A program made the translations under genes and the position numbers. The notes under the pieces are model-generated. The model worked only from the letters and a program-made list of their open reading frames with translations, searched no databases and was not told the DNA's origin. A DNA stretch of 21,429 nucleotides from a virus: IMG/VR virus record IMGVR_UViG_3300004369_000179, positions 1-21,429 of that record; one strand, written 5' to 3'. This document shows, piece after piece, positions 3,005 through 18,909 of the stretch (the first letter of the stretch is position 1; each line of letters opens with the position of its first letter).

Positions 3005-3028
3005 AGAGGGGCTTCGGCCCCTCTTTTT
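3005..3028 (+). terminator. Rho-independent terminator
   Basis: AGAGGGGC-TTCG-GCCCCTCT followed by TTTT: an 8-bp stem with a UUCG tetraloop and a U tract, 11 nt after the stop of the 83-residue gene. The U tract also forms part of the stop codon of the convergent exonuclease gene. Confidence 0.88.
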
Positions 3029-3758
3029 ATATGTCCCTCGTGGCCCTTTTGGTTCGCTTACCCTGATACCAGTGAGCGCAGTCCCTGCACTGTAAACGCT
3101 GAGTGGTGAATTGACGGGTATAGGCAAGGCCACGCTTTTGGACGTTAAGCGAGCCACAGGCGGGGCAAGCCTCGCTATTGCCAATCCCAAGATGCGGATG
3201 GTTTCTAATGTAGGGCCGGAGTTTCTTATATAGCTTTTCTGTCAGTTGAGTGTCTTGCCTGTTATAGCGTTCCATCAGGCGCTGTGCCTTCTCGTCGCCA
3301 GCAAGAACTTCAGTCCATAGCGAATGACCTTGATGCTGCACCTTGCTGCCGATACCTAGCAACTGGCTCACATGGTCTAGCTTATGGCTATCGAAACGGA
3401 ACTGCTGGCGGACTACTTTGTAAAGATCGATGGAGGCAGTAGGTGGGGGCGGCTCCATGTTGTTCCTGACGAACTCGCCGCGCATATATTTGTTGTCAAA
3501 GCCATCGTTGTTGTAGCCGCACACCGCATCAGCCTCGTTCCAGAGGTCGTGCATGGCCTGAAGCATTCCCTCGTGGCCGTCTGTCCAATCTGAGTGGAAG
3601 TAAACCTTGCTCTTGCCATACCACTTAGCAGCAAAGCAGATCACGCCACCGAACTCACGAATTTGCGCCAAGCCGAGGTTCTGATCGCGCATACCCCAGA
3701 CCTCCGCGACCATAGGGCGAGTTTCTATATCGTAAAACAAAATCTTTGGATGGGCCAT
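3027..3758 (-). CDS. DEDD-superfamily 3'-5' exonuclease-like protein with C-terminal zinc ribbon
   Basis: A 243-residue protein with an RNase H-fold exonuclease pattern. FYDIET (Asp10, Glu12) is motif I, GYNNDGFDNKY (about 81-91) is motif II, and YNRQD (165-169) is motif III with Tyr and Asp, which suggests the DEDDy type. It resembles predicted PolB-like exonuclease domains. The C-terminal 50 residues hold a four-Cys ribbon, CPAC (198-201) and CRDC (224-227), probably for nucleic-acid binding. AAGGGGG precedes the ATG. It sits between a holin-like gene and the lysis cassette, an odd place for a nuclease in a late operon. Its role could be DNA processing during packaging, host DNA or RNA turnover, or defence; the sequence does not decide. 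Confidence 0.75.
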   Translation of the reverse strand: MAHPKILFYDIETRPMVAEVWGMRDQNLGLAQIREFGGVICFAAKWYGKSKVYFHSDWTDGHEGMLQAMHDLWNEADAVCGYNNDGFDNKYMRGEFVRNNMEPPPPTASIDLYKVVRQQFRFDSHKLDHVSQLLGIGSKVQHQGHSLWTEVLAGDEKAQRLMERYNRQDTQLTEKLYKKLRPYIRNHPHLGIGNSEACPACGSLNVQKRGLAYTRQFTTQRLQCRDCAHWYQGKRTKRATRDI

Positions 3759-3966: not shown

Positions 3967-4380
3967 TTACACCGCCGATGCAAACAATGTGATGCGCCCC
4001 GTGCCGCGAATGGTTTGGGTGGCACTGTCACGAATGTCTATGTCGAAAACGCCTTGCGCGAACGTAGTCGTTGCAAGCGACCATGTTTTCGCTGACGCTA
4101 GGCTGTGCCAAGAGCCGTAGGCTGGCCCGCTCGCAGTTGAGCCAGATACATAAGTGGCACGGGCCTCGTAGTTGTTTGCTTCGTCAGTCGGGATCACCCA
4201 CTCCTCGACTTGGCTTTGTCCGCTAGAAGATGTGTATTGATACACAAACCCGTCACCGCTCAGGGTATAGCGGGCTTCAGCCGTTCCGAAAGGCACACTG
4301 TCAAATACCGTCAGATCATTGACGATAATCTGAGCCGAACCCGCGCCCATGCCAGCCAGAACGGTTAGGATGCCGGACAT
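3967..4380 (-). CDS. Virion-associated tail appendage protein, unknown
   Basis: A 137-residue protein starting MSGILTVLAGMGAG at an ATG that shares one base with the preceding stop (TGATG). The core (GTAEARYTLSGDGFVYQYT...VEEWVIP...NNYEARATYVSG...GSWHSLASAKTWSL) is beta-rich with regular aromatic residues. It is similar in style to small proteins placed after fibre genes in marine siphoviruses. A hydrophobic N-terminus of about 20 residues is present but is not a clear signal peptide. Probably a tail-tip or fibre-linked component, inferred from position. Confidence 0.6.
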   Translation of the reverse strand: MSGILTVLAGMGAGSAQIIVNDLTVFDSVPFGTAEARYTLSGDGFVYQYTSSSGQSQVEEWVIPTDEANNYEARATYVSGSTASGPAYGSWHSLASAKTWSLATTTFAQGVFDIDIRDSATQTIRGTGRITLFASAV

Positions 4381-5075
4381 CAGCTTAGACCCGCTCCAGA
4401 GATGACCCACACGTTAGAGGCTACCTTGACGCAAGTCGCTAGGCCATATTGCGCCAATGTGCGCGAACCAGTGTCAGCCGTTCCGGCCAGCCGGAGGGTG
4501 TCACTCGTGATGCCGATTGCCTGATTGCTTCCGCTGTTGTTGAAAATTGCGATGGTCGTGCCAATCGGAAACGCTACCGATCCGTTTGCCGGAATAGTCA
4601 CGCCGCCCGTGGTAATGCTGATGTGCTTGCCAGCGTCAGAAAGGGCCAGCGTATAGGCGCTTGTCTTGGCGTTTTGCGGGACACCGCGATAGCCGATGCT
4701 GTTCGCCGCAATTGTCCCTGTCGCCGTTACTGTGACATCTTGGTCAAGAGCCGTGATGTCAGTGTTAGCGCCTGACGCAGCCGCACCCAAATTCGACCGA
4801 GCGTCAGAGGGGTTTGTCGCGCCAGTGCCGCCGTCAGCTACCGCGAGAGTGCTGCTGATGCTGGTCGCAGTCGCAGCGTTACCGCTAATGCTGATCCCCC
4901 AAGTTCCAGACGCATTTGACCCATCAGCGCGAGCCGTAGCGATCCCGCCAACTGTCGAGCCGTTGTGAACACGCAAGGCGATATTAGTCGTGTCAACTGT
5001 AACCTCACCCACGACCCCAGTGAAGGAAGCGTGTTCTGTGGCTGTGCCGCGCCGGATTTTTACTTGTTTACTCAT
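4380..5075 (-). CDS. Tail fibre protein with Mtd-like N-terminal domain
   Basis: A 231-residue protein. Residues 1-45 (KQVKIRRGT...EHASFTG..GEVTVDTT...RVHNGSTVGG) match the short N-terminal module shared by many phage fibres and tropism-determinant proteins. Residues 75-96 (TLAVADGGTGATNPSDARSNLG) are the typical collar-like fibre repeat. The rest is a Ser/Thr/Gly/Ala-rich beta region ending in a small C-terminal knob-like segment. It overlaps the previous gene by 4 nt (ATGA). It probably contributes to receptor binding at the tail tip. Confidence 0.75.
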   Translation of the reverse strand: MSKQVKIRRGTATEHASFTGVVGEVTVDTTNIALRVHNGSTVGGIATARADGSNASGTWGISISGNAATATSISSTLAVADGGTGATNPSDARSNLGAAASGANTDITALDQDVTVTATGTIAANSIGYRGVPQNAKTSAYTLALSDAGKHISITTGGVTIPANGSVAFPIGTTIAIFNNSGSNQAIGITSDTLRLAGTADTGSRTLAQYGLATCVKVASNVWVISGAGLS

Positions 5076-5674
5076 ACGATAGAACCCCAGTCATCAGTCG
5101 CTGTGATAGCCGCCGTGATAGTTGACCAATCTTCAGTGCCAGCCAGATAGTCTGTAACATAATTGCTGAAATCGTTCAAAGTATATGCGAAGGTTCGCGC
5201 CCCGTTGTGGAACGCAACAGCTTTTGAATTGAAAGTTGATTGCTGGTCTGTCCTTGTCGGGCTTGCCGGAATAGTCGGCACTGTTGGCCTTTCAGGATCA
5301 CTTACAACAGGGGCTGATGGGTCATCTCTTGTGTCGATATACGCCGCAACGGCGTTCGCGTCAGCCACGAAATCGGACAGGCTGCCGAGCAGGCTATCTA
5401 TAGCGCCGATCAGTTCCAAGCCTGTCAGCCCCGTAGGTGATGCGTCAGGGAAGTTTGTGATGTTACTTCCGCTGCCGCCAGATGGGCTTTGAGTTATCAA
5501 GCCCCAATCGTTAATGTTGAAATTGAACCCGTTCAATTCCCCCGCAAGGCTATTGCATTGGCTGACAAATGTCGGTTGCGCCTCTAGGAACGCGAGGCTT
5601 TCAGCGTAAAAGTTTGTCGGATCGCCTAGCCGCGATGGCGTTGCAGGAAAGGCGGAGATAGTCGTGACAGCCAT
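5072..5674 (-). CDS. Tail-tip/appendage structural protein
   Basis: A 200-residue protein starting MAVTTISAFPATPSRLGDPTN. The N-terminal part (NFYAESLAFLEAQPTFVSQCN) is helical, followed by a Gly/Ser-rich linker, a hydrophobic helix (GLELIGAIDSLLGSLSDFVA), a Pro-rich hinge, and a C-terminal helical segment. Proteins with this F-P-x-x-P-x-R-x-D/G-P-x-x-F start are common as virion proteins next to fibres in marine phages. Its ATG shares one base with the stop of the upstream gene. Function is inferred from position. Confidence 0.6.
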   Translation of the reverse strand: MAVTTISAFPATPSRLGDPTNFYAESLAFLEAQPTFVSQCNSLAGELNGFNFNINDWGLITQSPSGGSGSNITNFPDASPTGLTGLELIGAIDSLLGSLSDFVADANAVAAYIDTRDDPSAPVVSDPERPTVPTIPASPTRTDQQSTFNSKAVAFHNGARTFAYTLNDFSNYVTDYLAGTEDWSTITAAITATDDWGSIV

Positions 5675-6576
5675 TAGGTTAGCCCCTCAATGGTTAGCGC
5701 ACAGCTAGATATAGATGGATTGCTCAGAACGACATTGAAGTCACGATAGTAGCCGTAGACAATTGTCTCCTCGCGGTTGCGGTCGCCGATATAAACGCAG
5801 GGAGTGGCACGAATGCCAGCCAAGAACCGATTGAACACGCCGACCTCAGACGTTTCGATTGTTAAGTCAAACTCGGCCCGCTTGCTGTAAGGGCGCTGAA
5901 CTATGGTAATGTTTCCGAAGTCATCGACCTGCTTGACGCTATAATCCTTAATGCCGACACTCGTTCCGAAGTTGGTCACGGCCAACTCCGACTGCACACC
6001 GAACGCAGCTTCGGCGCAAAGAGCAGTCCCAGTGCCTGCGTCAATAATTAGCTGATAGGTCGCGCCAGTGTAGAATGGGATGTCCAAGAAAGCGACTTCC
6101 GCTTGAGCATCCAGAGGCATTGCCCCGAAATAGTAACTGTAGAAGCCCGTGACGTTCGTGTAGTCAGCGAGCGTCCGTGTCTCGTTGTAGACAATGGTCG
6201 AGCCGCTATCGCGCACAATAAGCTGCGCTGTGGCTCCCTCAACGCCGAACAACACGAGGGCGTTGTAGGGCGTGGATGGTGTGACTGTGACGTTAATGGT
6301 GCTAGGATTGCTCGTTGCGCTGCCGACAGTCGCGTCAAACATCTTGAAGCGGTTCGTGGCGCTGACAAAAAGCCACGTTGGCGGGTTCGCAGCAGCGCCC
6401 GTGTCAGGCTGCACGTTCAGCGTTGTGCTGACAGCTTCATAGACGTTGTGATCGTAAATAACCCTGTCGCCCTGATTGTAGGTCGTCGAACTACTCCAAG
6501 CAGAATAGTCGTTCTCAGGGACGTTAGTGCTGGTTAGGGTCGCTGCCGTTACTGCATCCGGCTTAATAATAATCAC
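5674..6576 (-). CDS. Minor tail / tail-tip protein with carbohydrate-binding-like module
   Basis: A 300-residue protein read from a GTG at 6576, with CGGGAG 7 nt upstream and a 14-nt overlap with the tape measure. An upstream ATG at 6612 lacks a comparable site and would extend the overlap to 50 nt. Residues about 24-69 (YSAWSSSTTYNQGDRVIYDHNVYEA...) form the W-x(4-6)-Y-x-x-G-D-x-V-x-Y-x-x-x-x-Y-x-A pattern of chitin-binding/CBM5-12-like domains. The rest is beta-rich, ending in a domain with RAEFDLTIETSEVGVFNRFLAGI. Following the tape measure directly, it probably builds the distal tail and may touch surface glycans. Confidence 0.7.
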   Translation of the reverse strand: MIIIKPDAVTAATLTSTNVPENDYSAWSSSTTYNQGDRVIYDHNVYEAVSTTLNVQPDTGAAANPPTWLFVSATNRFKMFDATVGSATSNPSTINVTVTPSTPYNALVLFGVEGATAQLIVRDSGSTIVYNETRTLADYTNVTGFYSYYFGAMPLDAQAEVAFLDIPFYTGATYQLIIDAGTGTALCAEAAFGVQSELAVTNFGTSVGIKDYSVKQVDDFGNITIVQRPYSKRAEFDLTIETSEVGVFNRFLAGIRATPCVYIGDRNREETIVYGYYRDFNVVLSNPSISSCALTIEGLT

Positions 6577-9500
6577 TCTGCAACTCCCGAATATCTGGCT
6601 GTCCGTCACCATCCCAGCGATCTAGCAGCTTCGCAGTGTTACCCGTGTGTTTCGTGATGTTATAGAGCGCGTCACGGATCATCGCCTCCATGTCGGAAGT
6701 GTTCTCACCGAACACACCGCTAGTATTACCGCCGCCTCCTCCGGCAATGTTGGCGTTCCAGCTTGGGTCAATTGCAACGTCAGGCGCGGTCGGTTGCTCT
6801 AGCAAAGCTGCGATATTCACGAGTTCGTCTAGCTGTCGCTGCAAGAGGTCAATCTGCTGCTCCGCCGCGCTCACCTGTTCGTCAGCCGCCGCAATGCCCT
6901 GATCGACGTAGGAAGCCACCAGAGCGACATCCTTCTGGTAATCAAACAGAGAGCGGGCGTTAGCCTTGCTTGATGCAAGGAATGTCTGCGACACGCCCTG
7001 TAACTGGCCGAGAGCCTCAACGTCACCCGTAGAGGCCAGAGAGCCGACACGGATAAGATCAACCAAAGCCTGCTTGTAGTTTATGACGCTTTGATCTGCG
7101 CCATACAAACCCTCACGGAAAGCCCGCAGCGACCCCGCCAATTGCGTCATCGTTGCAATCGTATCCTCAAGCGTTGATACTTCTTCGACCCGCGCTTTGT
7201 TAAAGTCCTCAAGAGCATAAATCTGGTCTAAGATTGCCCGCTCTGCCTCAGTGGCGGCATCGCGCTCCATCTTGCGAGTTAGGGCCAGTTCTTCAGCTTC
7301 CTTGCCCTGCTCGCGGTATATACGCAAAATGAGGTCGTTGATTTTGTTAGCCTCATCCATTTGGCGCTGTTGTTCCTCTTTCAGAATATCGGCCCGCTCA
7401 AGGTCATAGAGCCTTTGAAGTTCAGCGTATTCTTCAGTGGTAGCGCCAGCCTTCTCAAATATCTTGTTCAGGCGATTAAACTCCTTGTCGAGTTCTTTTA
7501 GCCCGTGCGTAAGCGGATCGGTTTTCTCCAGAAGGCGGTCAAATACACCCTCAAAGTCCATAGCGTCTTGAAGTGCGGCCTCTAAGTCATCGCCAGCTTG
7601 CAGCAAGTTTTGTGTTGATTGGCGAATGCCTTCAATCGCGCCACGCTCAAGCGCCAGCTTGATGGCATAGCGGATCGCTTCCTCTTCTGTGTCAAACGCA
7701 ATCATGCCTTTCGTGCGGCCAAGGCCGAGCGGATCGACACGGAAGGTCTTCTTGCGAACGCCGATGCTTATCTTCAACCCGTCAGCAATCGTGCCGCTGA
7801 ACTCTTCAGCAATCCTTTGCAGTCCGTTTACAACGCTGCCCGCCAAGCCCTCGGCCATCTTTTTAAGCTGCCCGCTGCTGCCACGAACACTGGAGACCAT
7901 CGCGTTGCCGGAGATCGTTTCAATGGTGGCTGAAGCGCGAGGCGTGCTCTTCACCATCCCGCCGATCACGCCGCCAAGCAGCCCGCCCGCTATGCTGCCG
8001 ATTGGCCCTGCGAAGTCGCCTAGCCCCTTGAATACGCTCTCCAAGCCTTTCGTCAGGAACTTTTCACCCAACTTGCCCCCGATGGCCCCGCCAATAGAAC
8101 CGCCCAACGCACTGCCAGCAGCACCCCCGACAAGCCCGCCAGTAGCGGCATATTGCATCGCAGTCACGAAGGTATCACCCAAGTCGCCCAGCCCATCAAG
8201 TATCCTGTCGCCCAGAGAAACAAGCTGGTTGTCATCACCCCTAACTTGCATACGGAAAACTCCGCCGAGAACGCCGCCGATGCCATTGCGACCCAACATA
8301 TCAAAAACAGATTCGAAGCCTTCACGGAGTTTTTCAACTCGCTGAACGTCAGCCTCCACTTCGGCGTTGGCAGTTATTCCTTGAGTGCGTAAGTTCTTGT
8401 AGTGTTCCCAAGCCGCATTTAACTCTTCAGTCCCCATAGCTGCGTGTCTTACGCGAAAATCATGCTCTTCCAACTGCAAGTTGTGCAACTCAAGCGCCTT
8501 GCCGCTGAGGCCAAGCGCGGCATTTTGATGCTCAATCTGCCTGATAAGAGATTGATAAGAAAGCCGTGTTTCATCCAGCTTTTTGTTTTGCTCTGAAAGC
8601 CTGTCTATAGCCTCTTTTTGCTTCGATGCTTGGTCAAGTTCATCACGAACTTGGATCAGGGCCGCAGCTAAATCCTTGTTGTGCTTTGCTGCCTCAGCGG
8701 CAGCCTCCGTAAGTTCACGGAAACGTGTCTGCTCTGACGTTTCATTTAAGGCCAAGAGTTGCTGTTGTGCGCCGCCAAGAACGCCTTCAAGGCGTTTCAG
8801 CTCGTCGCTCTGCCTTTTAACCTCGTCGTTTGTGGCGCTGATCTGCCCCCCAGCGCCCGCTTGGACTTCGTTCATTTGACCCGTTTTATCAATGGCGTTT
8901 ATATAAGCCAGATCAACTCTAGCAAGACCAGTGTTCAGCTCTAAAATTTGCTTGTCTAGGTCTTCAATTTTCTTTTTAATCCCCGCAACTGGAAGCCCCT
9001 TGCTGGGGTCATCTGTGCTGATCTTCAGGGATCGCTCTAGTGTTCTTTTCTTTGCGACCAGATCGTTTAGGTCTTGCTCTCCCTGCGCCCTTCTAACCGC
9101 AAAATCTGCCGATCTAGCTTGCGCGAGTGATCTCAATTCAGCCAGAAGCAGGCTTGTGGATGCAGTCGTGTCTTCCACCTCCTCCCTGAAGCCGACCATG
9201 TAGGTCGTTAATGCGGCTAAAGCCACCGCCACAATGCCAAACGGGTTACGCATAAGGGACAAGGTGAAGCGCGTCATCGCACCAGTTGCGGCGGTCGTAG
9301 CCGTCACAAAGGCAAACTTGGCTGCTGTCGCAAAGCCCAGCCGAGCGGTCATAGTCAGCAGAGTTGCCACATACGGAACCATTGCTAAATTCACTAACGC
9401 CAGCTTTGCAGCATAAAGTGCAGTCGCAGTAGCAATGCCAGAAAGAACCCCAGCTATCTCTCGGCCATTCTTCAACACCCAATCTAATGCAGGGATCAAC

Positions 9501-10555
9501 AGCCTAGCGAGTGCGTCGCCTAAAGTGAGCATGGCTTCCCCAAGCAAGGCCGCAGCCTGCCTCGTCTTGAAACCTAGCGACTGCTCCATCTTCTCGACGG
9601 CCTCAGCGGCGGCCCCGCTCTTTTCCTCCATTTGTTCCAGAATTTCGTTAAAACTCTGCCCAGCCGTTCCCATCAAAGCCATGACAGGAACCAACGCCTC
9701 AACGCCCCCAAACAATTTTGCCAGCTCATCCTGATTGTCGCCAGCCTTCTCGCGCAAATCATCTAGGAAGCCAGCCAAGCCCTTCGACTGAAGTGCCGCA
9801 CTATTAAACTCAAGACCAAGAGATTTAGCTGTGTCGGCGGCCTCTTTTGTCGGCTTTGCTACGGAGGCAAGAACAGCTCTCATGCCTTGAACCGCAATGC
9901 TGGTTCTGATGCCGCCCTTCGTTAGCGCGGCAACGGAGCCAACTAATTCGTCAACGCTAACGCCCATTTCGGAGGCCAATGGAGCAGCTAGACCGAGGGT
10001 TCTAGAGAGTTCTTCGATTGTTGTTTTACCAGCCCTCATGCCAACAAACAGAGCATCCGAAACTTGCCCAGCGTCCTCAGCGGCAATTCCGAAAGCGTTG
10101 ACAACAGTTGTCAGACCATCAGCAGCGGTCGCTACATCCGTAACACCGCCAACGGCCAGCTTGTTAGCCTCTGTGAGCAAACCAATCGCACCCGCCGAAG
10201 TTGTCGCACCTGCTGAGATGATGCTATAAAGGGCGTTGGCTTGTTCTGGGGCCGTCGAACCAAAAGCGATTGCCTGTTCACGAGCCGCCCTTGAGAGTTC
10301 ATCCATGCTAATAACGGCTGTGTCCACTAGTGTGGAAACCTCCGCCATCGCATCGCCAAATTGTATTGTTGCCCCAAGAACCTTACTGATGCCAGCATAA
10401 GCGGCAGCAAAACTCAGCGCCTTAACCGCCACGCCCATAAGGTTGGCCTCGCGGGTCGCGCCTTTTGAAGCACGGGAGAAAGCGCCGAGATCGCGTGAAG
10501 CGCCCCGAACATCCGTGCTATCGACTGCAATGCGAAGTTTAGCTAAATCGGCCAC
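6563..10555 (-). CDS. Tail tape measure protein, TP901 type
   Basis: A 1330-residue protein that sets tail length and is ejected with the DNA. Residues about 60-290 form the TP901-type core, including GMRAGKTTIEELSRTLG at 172-188. Hydrophobic membrane-active segments lie at about 370-450, long Gln/Glu/Lys coiled coils at about 460-660 and 1050-1150, and a Gly/Ala-rich hydrophobic stretch at about 800-868. The start is GTG, with AGGGG 6 nt upstream. At the usual 1.5 angstrom per residue the tail would be about 200 nm (inference). It follows the G/T chaperones, as in most siphoviruses. Confidence 0.93.
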   Translation of the reverse strand: MADLAKLRIAVDSTDVRGASRDLGAFSRASKGATREANLMGVAVKALSFAAAYAGISKVLGATIQFGDAMAEVSTLVDTAVISMDELSRAAREQAIAFGSTAPEQANALYSIISAGATTSAGAIGLLTEANKLAVGGVTDVATAADGLTTVVNAFGIAAEDAGQVSDALFVGMRAGKTTIEELSRTLGLAAPLASEMGVSVDELVGSVAALTKGGIRTSIAVQGMRAVLASVAKPTKEAADTAKSLGLEFNSAALQSKGLAGFLDDLREKAGDNQDELAKLFGGVEALVPVMALMGTAGQSFNEILEQMEEKSGAAAEAVEKMEQSLGFKTRQAAALLGEAMLTLGDALARLLIPALDWVLKNGREIAGVLSGIATATALYAAKLALVNLAMVPYVATLLTMTARLGFATAAKFAFVTATTAATGAMTRFTLSLMRNPFGIVAVALAALTTYMVGFREEVEDTTASTSLLLAELRSLAQARSADFAVRRAQGEQDLNDLVAKKRTLERSLKISTDDPSKGLPVAGIKKKIEDLDKQILELNTGLARVDLAYINAIDKTGQMNEVQAGAGGQISATNDEVKRQSDELKRLEGVLGGAQQQLLALNETSEQTRFRELTEAAAEAAKHNKDLAAALIQVRDELDQASKQKEAIDRLSEQNKKLDETRLSYQSLIRQIEHQNAALGLSGKALELHNLQLEEHDFRVRHAAMGTEELNAAWEHYKNLRTQGITANAEVEADVQRVEKLREGFESVFDMLGRNGIGGVLGGVFRMQVRGDDNQLVSLGDRILDGLGDLGDTFVTAMQYAATGGLVGGAAGSALGGSIGGAIGGKLGEKFLTKGLESVFKGLGDFAGPIGSIAGGLLGGVIGGMVKSTPRASATIETISGNAMVSSVRGSSGQLKKMAEGLAGSVVNGLQRIAEEFSGTIADGLKISIGVRKKTFRVDPLGLGRTKGMIAFDTEEEAIRYAIKLALERGAIEGIRQSTQNLLQAGDDLEAALQDAMDFEGVFDRLLEKTDPLTHGLKELDKEFNRLNKIFEKAGATTEEYAELQRLYDLERADILKEEQQRQMDEANKINDLILRIYREQGKEAEELALTRKMERDAATEAERAILDQIYALEDFNKARVEEVSTLEDTIATMTQLAGSLRAFREGLYGADQSVINYKQALVDLIRVGSLASTGDVEALGQLQGVSQTFLASSKANARSLFDYQKDVALVASYVDQGIAAADEQVSAAEQQIDLLQRQLDELVNIAALLEQPTAPDVAIDPSWNANIAGGGGGNTSGVFGENTSDMEAMIRDALYNITKHTGNTAKLLDRWDGDGQPDIRELQSDYY

Positions 10556-10607: not shown

Positions 10608-11048
10608 CTACTGACCAGCCCGCTTTCCATTCACCTTGTTGGCCCAATCAGCCATAGCCGCTGAAATGCGCTCTCGTTGCTGCTGTGTGATTGTTTGCTT
10701 TGTTGGGGCGTATGGGGGCGGGCAGTCTGGTTTCCGCGCCCTGTGGGCCTCTCCGGCGTATTCAGCGGACAATCGCTTGATTATGTCAGCCTCCCAACCT
10801 TCGAATTCTATCCCTCGGTTATATTGCCACGCGAAAAGTTCAAGTTCGCTAATAGGGGCCATGCTGCCCATGCCGACCACCTGTGTCGGGCCGACCTCAA
10901 ACAAGGCTTCAATAAGGTGCGCCCCGCCGCTTACAGGCGGCAGGGTTGTCACGCTTGTTTTCATGCGAGGCTGCTTGGCTTTGTCGGGAGTCGCTTGAAG
11001 CCAAGCTAGCTGCCTGACGTATAGCGCAAGTTCCTCAATCAGTTCTTC
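10608..11048 (-). CDS. Tail assembly chaperone T domain (frameshift extension of G)
   Basis: This frame is open from the run of seven T at the end of G. It begins EELIEELALYVRQLAWLQAT and continues through an internal Met at 10964 into a conserved-looking region (GPTQVVGMG...ELELFAWQYNRGIEFEGWEADIIKRLS...ARKPDCPPPY). Phage chaperone C-terminal halves often show this W-x-x-x-x-G-I-x-x-x-x-W-E...L-S...D-C-P-x-P pattern. The Met at 10964 has no ribosome site, so the product is probably made only as a fusion to G by +1 or -2 frameshifting. That gives about 275 residues. G and GT together coat the tape measure and recruit tube subunits. Confidence 0.75.
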   Translation of the reverse strand, partial: EELIEELALYVRQLAWLQATPDKAKQPRMKTSVTTLPPVSGGAHLIEALFEVGPTQVVGMGSMAPISELELFAWQYNRGIEFEGWEADIIKRLSAEYAGEAHRARKPDCPPPYAPTKQTITQQQRERISAAMADWANKVNGKRAGQ

Positions 11049-11436
11049 AAAAAAAGTTTGAGCGGTTAGCTACAAACTCCTGCGCCTGTTGCATGAGCCA
11101 TTCATGCTCGCTGTAAACCATGCGGGCATTCTCTTCATTGAACGACAGCTTTTTGCCATCCAGTTCGAAGCCCTTCCAGTCAACAGTCAAAGCCACGACC
11201 TCATCCAAGGCATCGCGCTCAAGGGTATCTGCGTCCATTGAAACGGCTTTCTTACCCTTTGACATACGGGTAAGCATCGCGTTCTGCTTGCGGCGCTTGA
11301 GGTTCTTGAACACAGAACTATCCTGACCCAAGAGCGTGACGGTCATGCCCTCAATGACTTCTTCCGTGTCGGGGTGTAGAACTTCCATCACAGCGCCCTC
11401 TTCAGCGCGTGTCGGCTTTAGATTATTCAAATCCAT
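11047..11436 (-). CDS. Tail assembly chaperone (G-like)
   Basis: A 129-residue protein between the tail tube and tape measure genes. Its mixed charged composition and the segment GMTVTLLGQDSSVFKNLKRRKQNAMLTRM are typical of small tail assembly chaperones. The C-terminal WKGFELDGKKLSFNEENARMVY region resembles family members that end near the frameshift site. It has AGGA 7 nt before the ATG. The gene ends AAC-TTT-TTT-TGA, where a +1 or -2 shift enters the T frame. Confidence 0.75.
   Translation of the reverse strand: MDLNNLKPTRAEEGAVMEVLHPDTEEVIEGMTVTLLGQDSSVFKNLKRRKQNAMLTRMSKGKKAVSMDADTLERDALDEVVALTVDWKGFELDGKKLSFNEENARMVYSEHEWLMQQAQEFVANRSNFF
11049..11055 (-). other. Programmed frameshift site (T7 run before UGA)
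   Basis: On the message, UCA AAC UUU UUU UGA A. A slip of +1 (UUU re-pairing one base on, next codon GAA) or -2 enters the open T frame. The -1 frame closes after six codons. In the T frame a TAG lies just upstream at 11070-11072, which confines the shift to this short window. Confidence 0.7.
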
Positions 11437-11555: not shown

Positions 11556-12008
11556 TTAGACCTTGACGATGCTGTTGTCGATTTCGAGAACAACTTCAGC
11601 CATCGTGATGCTGTCGGCGTTAGCGACATTCACGCGATAACTCATGACCTGTGCTGTGAAATACTGGATAGAACCATCCACGAGTGCAACCTTCACAGAC
11701 ACAGTTGCGTCTGAACCAGCGGCAGCGTCAGCCTTGGTCTCAAAGATAGCCTGACCCGCATCGGTAGCCGATACAGCCATTGTCAGGGTGACAGAGCCAT
11801 AGTTTACGGAACCACGGCGCTTTGCAACGATACCAGTTGCAAGAGGTGTGTGCGTGGCAAGGGCAGCTTCCGAACCGAAAGCTGGCAAGTCTGCCAGTTC
11901 ACCGCATGAAGCCCAAGTAAGTGCGGCAAAGCCTGTTGTGTCATAGGTTGCAGGTGCTTGATCGTCTACAGAGACAACCGTTCCCACTGATGAAAATACG
12001 TCCGACAT
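11556..12008 (-). CDS. Major tail tube protein
   Basis: A 150-residue beta-rich protein. It starts MSDVFSSVGTVVSVDDQAPATYDTTGFAAL, the usual opening of one tail tube family (thin N-terminal arm, then P-A-T-Y-D-x-x-G-F). It continues through LTWASCGELADLPAFGSE and an alternating-strand core ending in VEVVLEIDN-type strands. It assembles into the tube that DNA passes through. CAGGAG precedes the ATG, and a terminator follows, as expected for a highly expressed gene. Its position between tail completion genes and G/T fits. Confidence 0.85.
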   Translation of the reverse strand: MSDVFSSVGTVVSVDDQAPATYDTTGFAALTWASCGELADLPAFGSEAALATHTPLATGIVAKRRGSVNYGSVTLTMAVSATDAGQAIFETKADAAAGSDATVSVKVALVDGSIQYFTAQVMSYRVNVANADSITMAEVVLEIDNSIVKV

Positions 12009-14863: not shown

Positions 14864-15835
14864 TTAAGCGTCCGCATCACCGATGGCGATAACGCCGGAG
14901 GTGTGCTTGATGTCGGTCGCGACTTTATCCCAGTTAGTGCCAGTTGCCAGTTCAGCGTCAGTTGGCGACTTGCCGCCGTTTACGCTGTCCCAGCTATAGC
15001 CCTTGAGAGCCACGCCGAAGCTGTAGTCAACCTGCATAGTGGTTTCAATGCGGGTCTGACCGTTAGTGGTTTCGATGTTGCTGATTACATCACCGCCATC
15101 ATAAACGATAGCCGATCCGTCAACGAGGCCGAGAACCTTGTTCTTGTTAGGAGTTCCAGCAACAAAGAGTGCTGGTGCGTCCGTAACAACTACAGGGCGG
15201 CCAAGGATGTCAACAACCTGCACGTTACCAGCCACGAACAACTGAGCGCCGTTAGCGAGGTTCTGGCTAATCAGCTTGTGATACTGTGAGCCGTTCATGA
15301 CGTTTGCGACGATGTTTGACGAGCTATCGCCGAACAGGGCGTGAGCCGTGTTCATCGTGCCGTAGGTGCAAGCACCAGTAGAAGAAACGTCAACAGTCGT
15401 TGCAGCGCCTTGGTTTTCGATACCAGCAACCAAGCAAGCAACAGCAGTGTTCAACTGATCTTTCAGCAGTGCTTCAGCGAAGTTACGCGATGCAACTTCG
15501 ATGCCTTCAGCGGTTGGCTTCTGGAGCCAAGTAAGCTGCGAAGGTTCAAAGCGGATCGGGCCAAAGCCGCCAGCCACTTTAACGCCATTCTTCTGAAGCT
15601 GTGACAGGTCAGTTGCCGAAGCAGCGCCTTGAGCAGCGTAACGGTCAACACGGCGCTGTGCGCTGTGGATCGCGGCGAAGAAAGACTCTTGATAGAAATC
15701 ACCATCAAAGCCTTCAGTTGTCAAACGGATAGCGCCACCGCTTTCGCCGTTGAACTTCTCAACCATCTGGCCGAGAGTTTCAATGGTAGCTGGCATGACG
15801 TATTCGTTGAATACTTTCATATCAGAGAGAGCCAT
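14864..15835 (-). CDS. Major capsid protein, HK97-fold type
   Basis: A 323-residue protein starting MALSDMKVFNEYVMPATIETLGQ. Following elements include FNGESGGAIRLTTEGFDGDFYQESFF (about 29-54), a conserved-looking R-R-V-D-R-Y, and a long central domain with ALFGDSSSNIVANVMNGSQYHKLI and VVDILGRPVVVTDAPALF (about 207-224). Matches by pattern to phage capsid proteins starting D-x-x-V-F-N-E-Y. The scaffold gene is directly upstream, and a terminator plus connector genes lie downstream. GAGGT precedes the ATG. No long N-terminal delta domain is evident, consistent with a separate scaffold. Confidence 0.88.
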   Translation of the reverse strand: MALSDMKVFNEYVMPATIETLGQMVEKFNGESGGAIRLTTEGFDGDFYQESFFAAIHSAQRRVDRYAAQGAASATDLSQLQKNGVKVAGGFGPIRFEPSQLTWLQKPTAEGIEVASRNFAEALLKDQLNTAVACLVAGIENQGAATTVDVSSTGACTYGTMNTAHALFGDSSSNIVANVMNGSQYHKLISQNLANGAQLFVAGNVQVVDILGRPVVVTDAPALFVAGTPNKNKVLGLVDGSAIVYDGGDVISNIETTNGQTRIETTMQVDYSFGVALKGYSWDSVNGGKSPTDAELATGTNWDKVATDIKHTSGVIAIGDADA

Positions 15836-16803: not shown

Positions 16804-18909
16804 CTAGAATGCCCCGTAAAAAATCTTCATGATGAACTCAAAATATTCCCTATCCTGCTCTAGAAATAGTTTCGGGTTTTTGAGCAACCTTTCTATTCCG
16901 ACAGTCAAAAGTTCTGTGGCTGGCGTTGTTGAGGCCTCTGACGAGTAAATTCTTCCGACATAATGGTTGCCGCCCTTTTCTTTCCATTTGTCTTTGTAGG
17001 CTATCTCGTCAAATGGCAATCCGCGCTCAATCTGGCTCATTGGGACTGGCCCAACACCACCTGATCTCTTTTCCAGAAACCTTCTTGTTTGCGTTAAAAC
17101 TTCAGGGTATCGTTTTTCAAGATCGTGAACTATCTCATGCACATAAGAAGAAACATCACTGCTAGAGTGCATATTGATTGTTGCAGTTTTAGGGTTGTAT
17201 GATGCCCTGCTTCGCTTGTTTGTTGCAACTGCAACATTCGGCGTTAAGTCCTTGTGAACGATGCGCGAAATCAAGGCCGTAGCCTCCTCGACTTTCTCTT
17301 TGTGCATCGCAGTGACCTTACCCCTAATCATATCTCTTGGATTGGAGCGCATCGCTTTGGGTAAGGAAATAAGATCTAATTGCTGCTCAAGGTCGCGCTT
17401 ACCTGCTTTTATCAGGCTTGCGCTAGCAGTCGCCAATTTGTTGTCTAAATCTTTAAAGACTTCACGCGCTGCATCTAATTTACTCTGCCTCCTTTCAAGC
17501 TCCTCGATCTGACTTATCGCAACCGCCCTTTGCCGATCAGACAGTTGACCTTTTCTGGATTTTTCAGCCGCCTTGTTTAATCTATTGTAAATAGGTCTAA
17601 AATCTCTTTCCGCATCATTGTAATTTAAAAGTGCCGTTCTGCGCTGCTCAGTGATTGCTGCAACCTTAGCTGACTGATCCCTGATTTCTTGCGGTAGTCT
17701 GTAGCTATCAAGACGCTGAAGTGCAGCGGCCAAAGCCTCACCCGAACTAGAAGAAAGTCTGCCCGCTTGCCTTGTTTCCTTGGCTGCTTCAGCCGCCCTC
17801 AGCTCTGCTAGTCTTTTTTGGATTTCAGTGGGAGAGGGGGCTACCTCTATGGTCTTTGGCCTCACTCGCTCAACTGTTCTAGTTGAGCCGTATTGAGTGC
17901 TTAACTGAGCAAGCGTCAGAGGATTGCCACGCTGGTCTAGCAGTTGGCTCAATGTGATCTTGTTGTCTCTCCAAAGCTGCGCTCTGCCCTTGCCTAACAT
18001 CTCGTCAGCAAAACTAGCTGGCTTGCTCCTTAGAAAGTCATCGAAGGTCAGGTCAGCGGCCACCTGCCCATCCATGCTTGAGCGCATCTCTGGGGGTATG
18101 TCATTCCGATCAACGCCCATCTCCTCTAGCGATTTCAGCACGGGGATAGTGGTGGATCGGCAGTTCCAGTGAGCGGGCGGCCCTCCGCTCCAGCCTATGC
18201 TGTGGCCCTTGGGTTTGTAGTCGGGCAACTCCCAAACCAGCCCCGCACGAGCAATGCAGATGTCACTAGTGCGCCCGTCAAGAGTGGCTAGCCACTGAAC
18301 CCCGTCAACCAGATCGGTATTTTCTTGGAAGGTCGCCTGACGCGCCTCATTCGAGACTGTTTGAACGCTTGTGCGAACGATTGCCATGCCGTTGCGGCGT
18401 GTTTTTGCGAGAACTTGCGTTCCCTTTTCATTTGCTGACTTGATGCGATTGAGTATTTCCCCGTTCGTTTCGCCAAGACTAACTCCCAGTTTGACAGCGC
18501 GTGACAACTCAAAGCGTGTTGTCTCTTGCAGACTACCAAACCATTGCCCAATTGTCGCCCCTTCGATCAGGCTTGTCGCAGCAATTCTTTCTAAAGTTTT
18601 CGCTGTAGGCAGAGCAGTGGTTAGTCCAACTTGAGAGAAAGCGTCCTTAGCAAACTCCGCCTCAAGCGCGGCCAGCGGCTTTACGTCTGGAGCCTTCAAA
18701 TTGACTATTGAAGCCATCTCAGAGATGGCCTTGTTTAGCCTAGCGGCCTTGTAGCCAGTAAGCGGCTTGGCGCTGACCAGCATCCTCTCCAGTTCTGCCG
18801 ATATTTCATCGACCAGCTTATTGAAGGCGCGTTGCTCCCCGCCAATAAGCCTTTGCAAAATTAGCTGTCGGATAACATACAGATCAGCAAGGCGATCAGA
18901 GGCGTTCAT
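16804..18909 (-). CDS. MuF-type head morphogenesis protein fused to HExxH metallopeptidase-like domain
   Basis: A 701-residue protein; classical MuF/SPP1 gp7 proteins are shorter and lack the C-terminal part. Residues about 100-260 are the MuF domain, with NGMAIVRTSVQTVSNEARQ (173-191), WLATLDGRTSDIC (206-218) and HWNCRS (247-252). Residues 360-500 are charged coiled coil. The C-terminal domain (about 540-701) has VHEIVHDLE, with HEIVH at 591-595, the zinc peptidase HExxH motif. TELLTVGIE (665-673) is a candidate for the third ligand. DNA coding for the C-terminal part is more AT-rich (19 G+C of 60 at 17581-17640) than for the MuF part (36 of 60 at 18241-18300). The ATG follows the previous stop with no gap. 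Confidence 0.85.
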   Translation of the reverse strand: MNASDRLADLYVIRQLILQRLIGGEQRAFNKLVDEISAELERMLVSAKPLTGYKAARLNKAISEMASIVNLKAPDVKPLAALEAEFAKDAFSQVGLTTALPTAKTLERIAATSLIEGATIGQWFGSLQETTRFELSRAVKLGVSLGETNGEILNRIKSANEKGTQVLAKTRRNGMAIVRTSVQTVSNEARQATFQENTDLVDGVQWLATLDGRTSDICIARAGLVWELPDYKPKGHSIGWSGGPPAHWNCRSTTIPVLKSLEEMGVDRNDIPPEMRSSMDGQVAADLTFDDFLRSKPASFADEMLGKGRAQLWRDNKITLSQLLDQRGNPLTLAQLSTQYGSTRTVERVRPKTIEVAPSPTEIQKRLAELRAAEAAKETRQAGRLSSSSGEALAAALQRLDSYRLPQEIRDQSAKVAAITEQRRTALLNYNDAERDFRPIYNRLNKAAEKSRKGQLSDRQRAVAISQIEELERRQSKLDAAREVFKDLDNKLATASASLIKAGKRDLEQQLDLISLPKAMRSNPRDMIRGKVTAMHKEKVEEATALISRIVHKDLTPNVAVATNKRSRASYNPKTATINMHSSSDVSSYVHEIVHDLEKRYPEVLTQTRRFLEKRSGGVGPVPMSQIERGLPFDEIAYKDKWKEKGGNHYVGRIYSSEASTTPATELLTVGIERLLKNPKLFLEQDREYFEFIMKIFYGAF

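What the first reader, a model, noticed from the sequence alone, without database searches (positions are those of the whole stretch)
10608..11436. Unusual +1 or -2 programmed frameshift joining tail chaperones G and T
G ends AAC-UUU-UUU-UGA. The T frame is open from this point to 10608, and the Met inside it has no ribosome site. The classical -1 frame closes after six codons, so the lambda-like -1 mechanism does not work here. The site UUU-UGA resembles the +1 logic of the RF2 gene (slip at a slowly read UGA), and -2 shifting on U7 is also possible. The T-frame stop at 11070-11072 limits the window to about seven codons.
Basis: partly seen in the sequence, partly recalled or inferred. Interest (0 to 1): 0.72.

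Follow-up and report, generated by a model that had tools for sequence, protein, structure and literature searches.

The report
Forward ribosomal frameshift makes tail chaperone
This phage appears to make its long tail-assembly chaperone by letting some ribosomes skip forward one base at a UUU codon just before a stop; dozens of related phages keep that slip site unchanged, while more distant relatives reach the same fused protein by slipping backwards instead.

Summary
Gene G (11047-11436, minus strand) ends AAC-UUU-UUU-UGA. The T frame (10608-11069) lies +1 to it, has no usable start before residue 29, and overlaps G by only 23 nt. Relatives settle the mechanism. In every +1 relative examined the junction is UUY_UUU_YRN. 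The A-site codon is CGC (most), CGA, CGU, CAA, CAC or UGA (window and its twin L002). The P-site codon was UUU, never UUC, in 40 of 40 95%-identity representatives, and in 56 of 56 distinct loci from a pattern scan that left that base free. T-frame substitutions are third-position biased upstream of any start codon. About a third of representatives read UUC_UUU, ruling out -2 slippage and poly-U slippage as the conserved mechanism. UGA is not essential, so the RF2 analogy is only partial. Homologous G/T pairs in prophages and cultured phages use ordinary -1 sites at the same residue; the +1 fusion aligns with theirs without a gap, the -2 fusion does not. A second, distant group (Curvibacter P26059A, Limnohabitans DC31) also has UUU_CGA or UUU_CAA. 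UUU_Y is a known +1-prone site (PMC5009743); I found no report of it in tail chaperones. No fusion protein has been detected.

The parts
11047..11436 (-). gene G: short tail assembly chaperone, 129 aa, ending ...NRSNFF*
   Evidence: phrog_313 'Tail assembly chaperone', E=1.8e-16; lies between the major tail protein (11556-12008, phrog_158) and the tape measure (6563-10555, phrog_991 and PF10145)
10608..11048 (-). T domain, 146 aa in the +1 frame, joined to G by the frameshift (...SNFF-EELIEELALYVRQLAWL...)
   Evidence: weak PF23812 Phage_TAC_18, 21.5 bits against a 27-bit cutoff; conserved as protein in +1-clade relatives; no ATG/GTG/TTG before 10964
11047..11052 (-). proposed shift site UUU_UGA (P-site UUU 11052-11050, A-site UGA 11049-11047); P-site tRNA-Phe re-pairs UUU to UUU (11051-11049), next codon GAA
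   Evidence: UUU_Y invariant in 40/40 95%-identity representatives and 56/56 distinct loci of a wobble-free pattern scan
11049..11055 (-). U7 run, the only T7 on the coding strand; not conserved (UUCUUUU in L002, UUYUUUC elsewhere)
11053..11055 (-). E-site Phe codon UUU, free to be UUC in relatives (26 UUU and 14 UUC of 40)
11047..11069 (-). 23-nt G/T overlap in which the shift must occur; bounded upstream by the T-frame TAG at 11070-11072

Best explanation
G and T encode a lambda-like tail-assembly chaperone pair. Most ribosomes stop at the UGA of G and make gpG. [quoted passage not shown] They then continue in the T frame and make gpGT (...N-F-F-E-E-L...). The required element is UUU_Y followed by a purine. 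The A-site codon varies: UGA in the window and its twin, CGN, CAA or CAC in relatives. No downstream structure or upstream Shine-Dalgarno-like stimulator is evident. Shown by sequence: the frame relation, the invariant UUU_YRN, coding constraint on T upstream of any start, and homologous -1 fusions with the same junction register. Inferred: that the shift happens, its efficiency (probably a few percent), the P-site slippage step, and the chaperone role.
For: 1) T lies +1 to G in the window, L002-L024, L037-L104, the +1-clade T loci and L186. 2) P-site Phe codon 129 is UUU in 40/40 95%-identity representatives, while the adjacent Phe 128 is 26 UUU and 14 UUC and other G Phe codons are 106 UUU and 25 UUC. 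3) A pattern scan leaving that wobble base free found UUU in 56/56 distinct G/T loci, followed by CGC 50, CAC 3, CAA 2, CGU 1. 4) T codons 6-20, before the first ATG/GTG/TTG in nearly all representatives, show third-position-biased substitutions (2101/1260/5906 at positions 1/2/3 over all pairs), so they are translated without an independent start. 5) The +1 fusion aligns gap-free with -1 fusions of homologues (SNFFEEL against WANFYEE); the -2 fusion needs a one-residue insertion. 6) A distant group with cultured members, P26059A, DC31 and L227-L230, has T in +1 at AAC_UUU_CGA or AAC_UUU_CAA. 7) UUU_Ynn is described as +1-prone in bacteria (PMC5009743), and UUU_CGU was shown by mass spectrometry to shift +1 in influenza PA-X (PMC3498833).
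Against: No protein evidence. The host is unknown, so tRNA and codon supply are untested; CGC is the commonest Arg codon in this window, so a hungry A-site codon is not obvious for most relatives. Downstream folding is unremarkable (z=-0.46). The T domain is only a sub-threshold Pfam match. The UUU statistics are not phylogenetically independent (12 of 12 at 80% identity).
Confidence: 0.9

Rival explanations
1. -2 frameshift on U7, as in phage Mu: tRNA-Phe slips back two bases, giving N-F-F-F-E-E-L.
For: In the window alone the U7 run permits UUU to UUU re-pairing two bases back. Phage Mu uses -2 frameshifting (PMC5009743).
Against: L002 and 14 of 40 representatives have UUC_UUU, where -2 re-pairing meets UCU. 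P26059A has AAC_UUU. The product would be one residue longer than homologous -1 fusions.
Confidence: 0.03
2. RNA polymerase slippage on T7 yields mRNAs with one U fewer, fusing G and T without ribosomal frameshifting.
For: T7 is the only such run on the coding strand of the window.
Against: The near-identical L002 has TTCTTTT and other relatives have TTYTTTC, with the same frame relation. The longest run there is 4 or 6.
Confidence: 0.03
3. T is a separate gene with its own start, and the overlap is incidental.
For: ATG 10964 exists in the T frame, and annotators of relatives call T from internal starts.
Against: Residues 1-28 of T (including YVRQLAWLQATPDKAKQPR) are conserved and under coding constraint upstream of any ATG/GTG/TTG. 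The ATG lacks a ribosome site.
Confidence: 0.03
4. The G-T split is a sequencing error or a pseudogene.
For: A T7 homopolymer can be miscalled (inference).
Against: The same frame relation occurs in independent contigs with different base sequence at the site, and both parts are under coding constraint.
Confidence: 0.01

Closest known systems
Phage lambda G/GT (and P2, HK97, L5) -1 frameshifted tail chaperones
   Same: Gene order, a chaperone made as a short form plus a rare fused form, junction near the end of G; homologous G/T pairs exist in -1 form
   Different: Direction is +1, by P-site slippage on UUU_Y, with no X_XXY_YYZ heptamer
UUU_CGN +1 sites of influenza A PA-X and plant amalgaviruses (PMC3498833, PMC5052127)
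   Same: UUU in the P site, Y as fourth base, mostly CGN in the A site; re-pairing of a single tRNA-Phe isoacceptor
   Different: Bacterial ribosome, phage tail gene, A site also UGA, CAA or CAC; no UCC E-site codon (Phe instead)
Bacterial UUU_Ynn +1 sites (YopN-TyeA and others, reviewed in PMC5009743)
   Same: Same tetranucleotide, no adjacent stop needed
   Different: Different gene; conservation across a phage clade documented here
RF2 (prfB) autoregulatory +1 site CUU_UGA
   Same: UGA in the A site and UUU as re-paired codon, in the window and L002 only
   Different: P-site codon UUU; no Shine-Dalgarno-like stimulator; stop not conserved; no autoregulatory logic
Phage Mu -2 frameshift; Listeria phage PSA/A118/A500 CCC_UGA +1; haloarchaeal HSTV-2 (likely +1); Mycobacterium phage Karhdo (TAC annotated +1, PMC10793310)
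   Same: Precedents for non-(-1) frameshifts in phage structural or tail genes
   Different: Mu is -2; the Listeria cases are capsid and tail-tube extensions on CCC; the HSTV-2 and Karhdo sites were not read here. In Che8, examined as a presumed relative of Karhdo from memory, no UUU_Y lies in the overlap

Membership tests
Siphophage G/GT tail assembly chaperones | Two short ORFs between major tail protein and tape measure, the first homologous to known chaperones | tested here: met
   phrog_313 E=1.8e-16; neighbours phrog_158 and phrog_991
Siphophage G/GT tail assembly chaperones | Second ORF lacks its own start and is reached by a frameshift from the first | tested here: met
Siphophage G/GT tail assembly chaperones | -1 slippery heptamer X_XXY_YYZ (commonest form, not universal) | tested here: not met
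   -1 frame closes within a few codons; T is in +1
Siphophage G/GT tail assembly chaperones | Fusion product present and needed for tail assembly | not testable with these tools
   needs mass spectrometry and mutants
UUU_Y (UUU_Ynn) +1 frameshift sites | Zero-frame UUU followed by a pyrimidine, conserved at the synonymous site | tested here: met
   40/40 and 56/56
UUU_Y (UUU_Ynn) +1 frameshift sites | Junction peptide consistent with +1 | not testable with these tools
   no proteomics; +1 register supported by alignment to -1 fusions
Strict UUU_CGN motif (PA-X, amalgaviruses) | A-site codon CGN | tested here: not met
   window and L002 have UGA; L123, L137 have CAA; L241 CAC; most relatives CGN
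RF2-type programmed +1 | CUU_UGA with an AGGGGG-like element just upstream | tested here: not met
   P-site UUU; no GGAG/AGGA/GAGG/AGGG/GGGG within 25 nt in any of 40 representatives
Mu-type -2 chaperone frameshift | Site allowing -2 re-pairing, conserved in relatives | tested here: not met
   UUC_UUU in 14/40 representatives

The most novel reading that the evidence does not exclude
UUU_YRN is a self-sufficient bacterial +1 frameshift cassette that phages have adopted at least twice in place of the -1 heptamer for tail chaperones. The fused protein's register is preserved while the slip direction reverses, and the A-site codon is free to be a stop (UGA) or a sense codon (CGN, CAN), so the shift would not depend on a rare codon, a stop or an RNA structure.
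Probability: 0.6. Interest if true: 0.68.

Novelty: new variant of a known kind. Interest (0 to 1): 0.57.

Why it matters
Known tail-chaperone frameshifts are mostly -1, with a few -2 or presumed +1 cases, and +1 sites are hard to recognise. Here a synonymous-site-invariant UUU_Y marks a +1 site across about 60 distinct phage sequences and recurs in a distant cultured group. Annotation could therefore join these genes: in P26059A and DC31 they are unjoined or missing. It gives a natural series of A-site codons (CGC, CGA, CGU, CAA, CAC, UGA) to test what makes UUU_Y slip. It also shows homologous genes changing slip direction while keeping the fused protein in register.

Tried and rejected
DNA search of the locus against phage records gave no match. 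Rfam: no hit. RNA folding downstream: z=-0.46, no evidence of a stimulator. Shine-Dalgarno-like stimulator within 25 nt: none. PDB search with the G profile: no convincing hit. AlphaFold of the fused protein from a single sequence: pLDDT 38, unusable. GTDB genome scan with the G alignment: none; with T: 33 loci, of which L186 (an Actinomycetota MAG contig, perhaps misbinned phage) shows the +1 site, the rest being distant and mostly -1. In one search the automatic longest-frame choice labelled L188, L201, L203, L211 and L212 'T=+1'; in GC-rich DNA I read this as a spurious long frame, since their sequence shows the same -1 type junction (AAUUUUACG or AUUUUACG) in register. A first DNA pattern had one N too few and was rerun. 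Mycobacterium phage Che8 has T in +1 but no UUU_Y in the overlap, so it is not the same site. Considered and rejected: -2, transcriptional slippage, independent T start, sequencing error.

Full report
What is there. The window is a 21.4 kb viral record carrying a siphophage head-tail module on the minus strand: head morphogenesis (16804-18909), scaffold, major capsid (14864-15835), connectors, tail terminator, major tail protein (11556-12008), G (11047-11436), T (10608-11069 frame), tape measure (6563-10555) and tail-tip/fibre genes. G matches the tail assembly chaperone family phrog_313 (E=1.8e-16). T is a sub-threshold match to Phage_TAC_18.

Observation check. G ends AAC-UUU-UUU-UGA. T is in the +1 (equivalently -2) frame, open from just after a TAG at 11072-11070, so the overlap is 23 nt. 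The -1 frame closes at once. The first ATG/GTG/TTG in T is at 10964, 28 codons past the junction, without a ribosome site.

Relatives. G relatives were found in 24 viral contigs by single sequence and 69 by profile, overlapping sets; T relatives in 12 and 80 and in 33 genome contigs. In the close clade T is always in +1. After removing duplicates, 64 distinct sequences reduce to 40 at 95% nucleotide identity. All 40 have UUU as the last Phe codon before the shift, followed by C or U and then a purine: CGC 35, UGA 2, CAA 2, CGA 1. The Phe codon one place upstream is UUU in 26 and UUC in 14, and Phe elsewhere in G is 106 UUU and 25 UUC. To avoid searching for what I expected, I scanned the viral collection with a DNA pattern that leaves the wobble base of this codon free. 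The sequences are related, so these counts are not independent; at 80% identity it is 12 of 12.

T is translated from the junction. In T codons 6-20, past the shift site and mostly before any start codon, substitutions over all pairs fall 2101/1260/5906 on codon positions 1/2/3, the mark of a translated frame. Most representatives have no ATG/GTG/TTG there, and the conserved motif (Y/F)V(R/K)Q.AWL lies upstream of the first one. T must therefore be entered from G.

Direction. -2 slippage could use the U7 of this window but not UUC_UUU (L002 and about a third of relatives), nor AAC_UUU of P26059A. +1 re-pairing UUU to UUU/UUC works in every case and needs only the normal tRNA-Phe (GAA). More distant T homologues (L026-L035, Duganella, Sphingomonas and other prophages) use -1, mostly on A_AAU_UUU, at the same residue. 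Aligning the predicted fusions...SNFFEELIEELALYVRQLAWL (+1) and ...WANFYEELGRELILYVRQLAWL (-1) match without a gap, while the -2 version needs an inserted residue. Relative L242 (DRTNFF) has A_AAU_UUU_UUU with T in -1, and L217 has AAUUUUUUCGCG with T in -1, one base from AACUUUUUUCGC in +1. A one-base change in the U run is therefore a plausible route between the two systems (inference).

A second group. Window G also finds Curvibacter phage P26059A and Limnohabitans phage DC31. Both have T in +1 with AAC_UUU_CGA, and relative L230 has AAC_UUU_CAA. In a G tree this group sits with -1 phages of Pasteurella and Mannheimia (99/97 support) and the label needs at least two changes on well supported branches, though long branches make the deep order unsure. 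Their T is annotated as a separate hypothetical ORF with an internal start, or not at all.

Mechanism. The A-site codon varies, no downstream structure or nearby Shine-Dalgarno-like element is apparent, and UUU_Y is constant. The simplest model is P-site slippage of tRNA-Phe from UUU to UUY while the A site is empty, as argued for influenza PA-X at UCC_UUU_CGU (PMC3498833) and described for bacterial UUU_Ynn (PMC5009743). A lambda-like system needs only a low fusion level (molar ratio about 30:1 in lambda, PMC5009743), so a weak, unstimulated site could suffice (inference). In the window and L002 the A-site codon is UGA, which one C-to-U change could make from the CGA seen in L040; there the shift would compete with RF2 termination.

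Novelty. Tail chaperones using -1, -2 or +1 are known in principle (PMC5009743); a mycobacteriophage is annotated +1 (PMC10793310) and HSTV-2 is thought to be +1. UUU_CGN is a known +1 motif of eukaryotic viruses (PMC5052127). In the papers I could search I found no report of UUU_Y as the conserved tail-chaperone shift site; Sencilo et al. 2013 was not held here and Xu et al. 2004 was not read. I rate it a new variant of a known kind.

Noticed in passing
L224 (KY981271, Curvibacter phage P26059A) 1462-2233; L226 (PQ492658, Limnohabitans phage DC31): G and T are unjoined: the P26059A T is annotated from an internal start and the DC31 T is not annotated, although both show AAC_UUU_CGA with T in +1. 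Cultured systems in which to test the shift.
   Followed up: yes
L217 (Rhodobacteraceae MAG) around 4985-5010 and L242: -1 relatives whose U-rich junction (AAUUUUUUCGCG; ACAAAUUUUUUUACC) differs by about a base from the +1 site, suggesting a one-indel route between -1 and +1.
   Followed up: partly
L021-L023, L086-L101, L119, L132, L162: In one subclade G continues 17 codons past UUU_CGC before its stop, so the shift site is not close to any zero-frame stop.
   Followed up: partly
L036 around 3970-4060: A close T relative (LYVRHLAWLQATPDK) joined to G by a different -1 site, C_CCA_AAA.
   Followed up: partly
window 3027-3758 (-): DNA polymerase exonuclease subunit-like gene (phrog_403, E=1.6e-76) downstream of the tail genes.
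   Followed up: no
window 5674-6612 and 6563-10555 (-): The tape measure gene and the next gene (phrog_6278, with a weak carbohydrate-binding module match) overlap by 50 nt.
   Followed up: no
L186 (RFTO01000003.1): A contig binned as Actinomycetota carries the +1 G/T pair with CAC_UUC_UUU_CGC; it may be a misbinned phage, so the host of this clade stays unknown.
   Followed up: no
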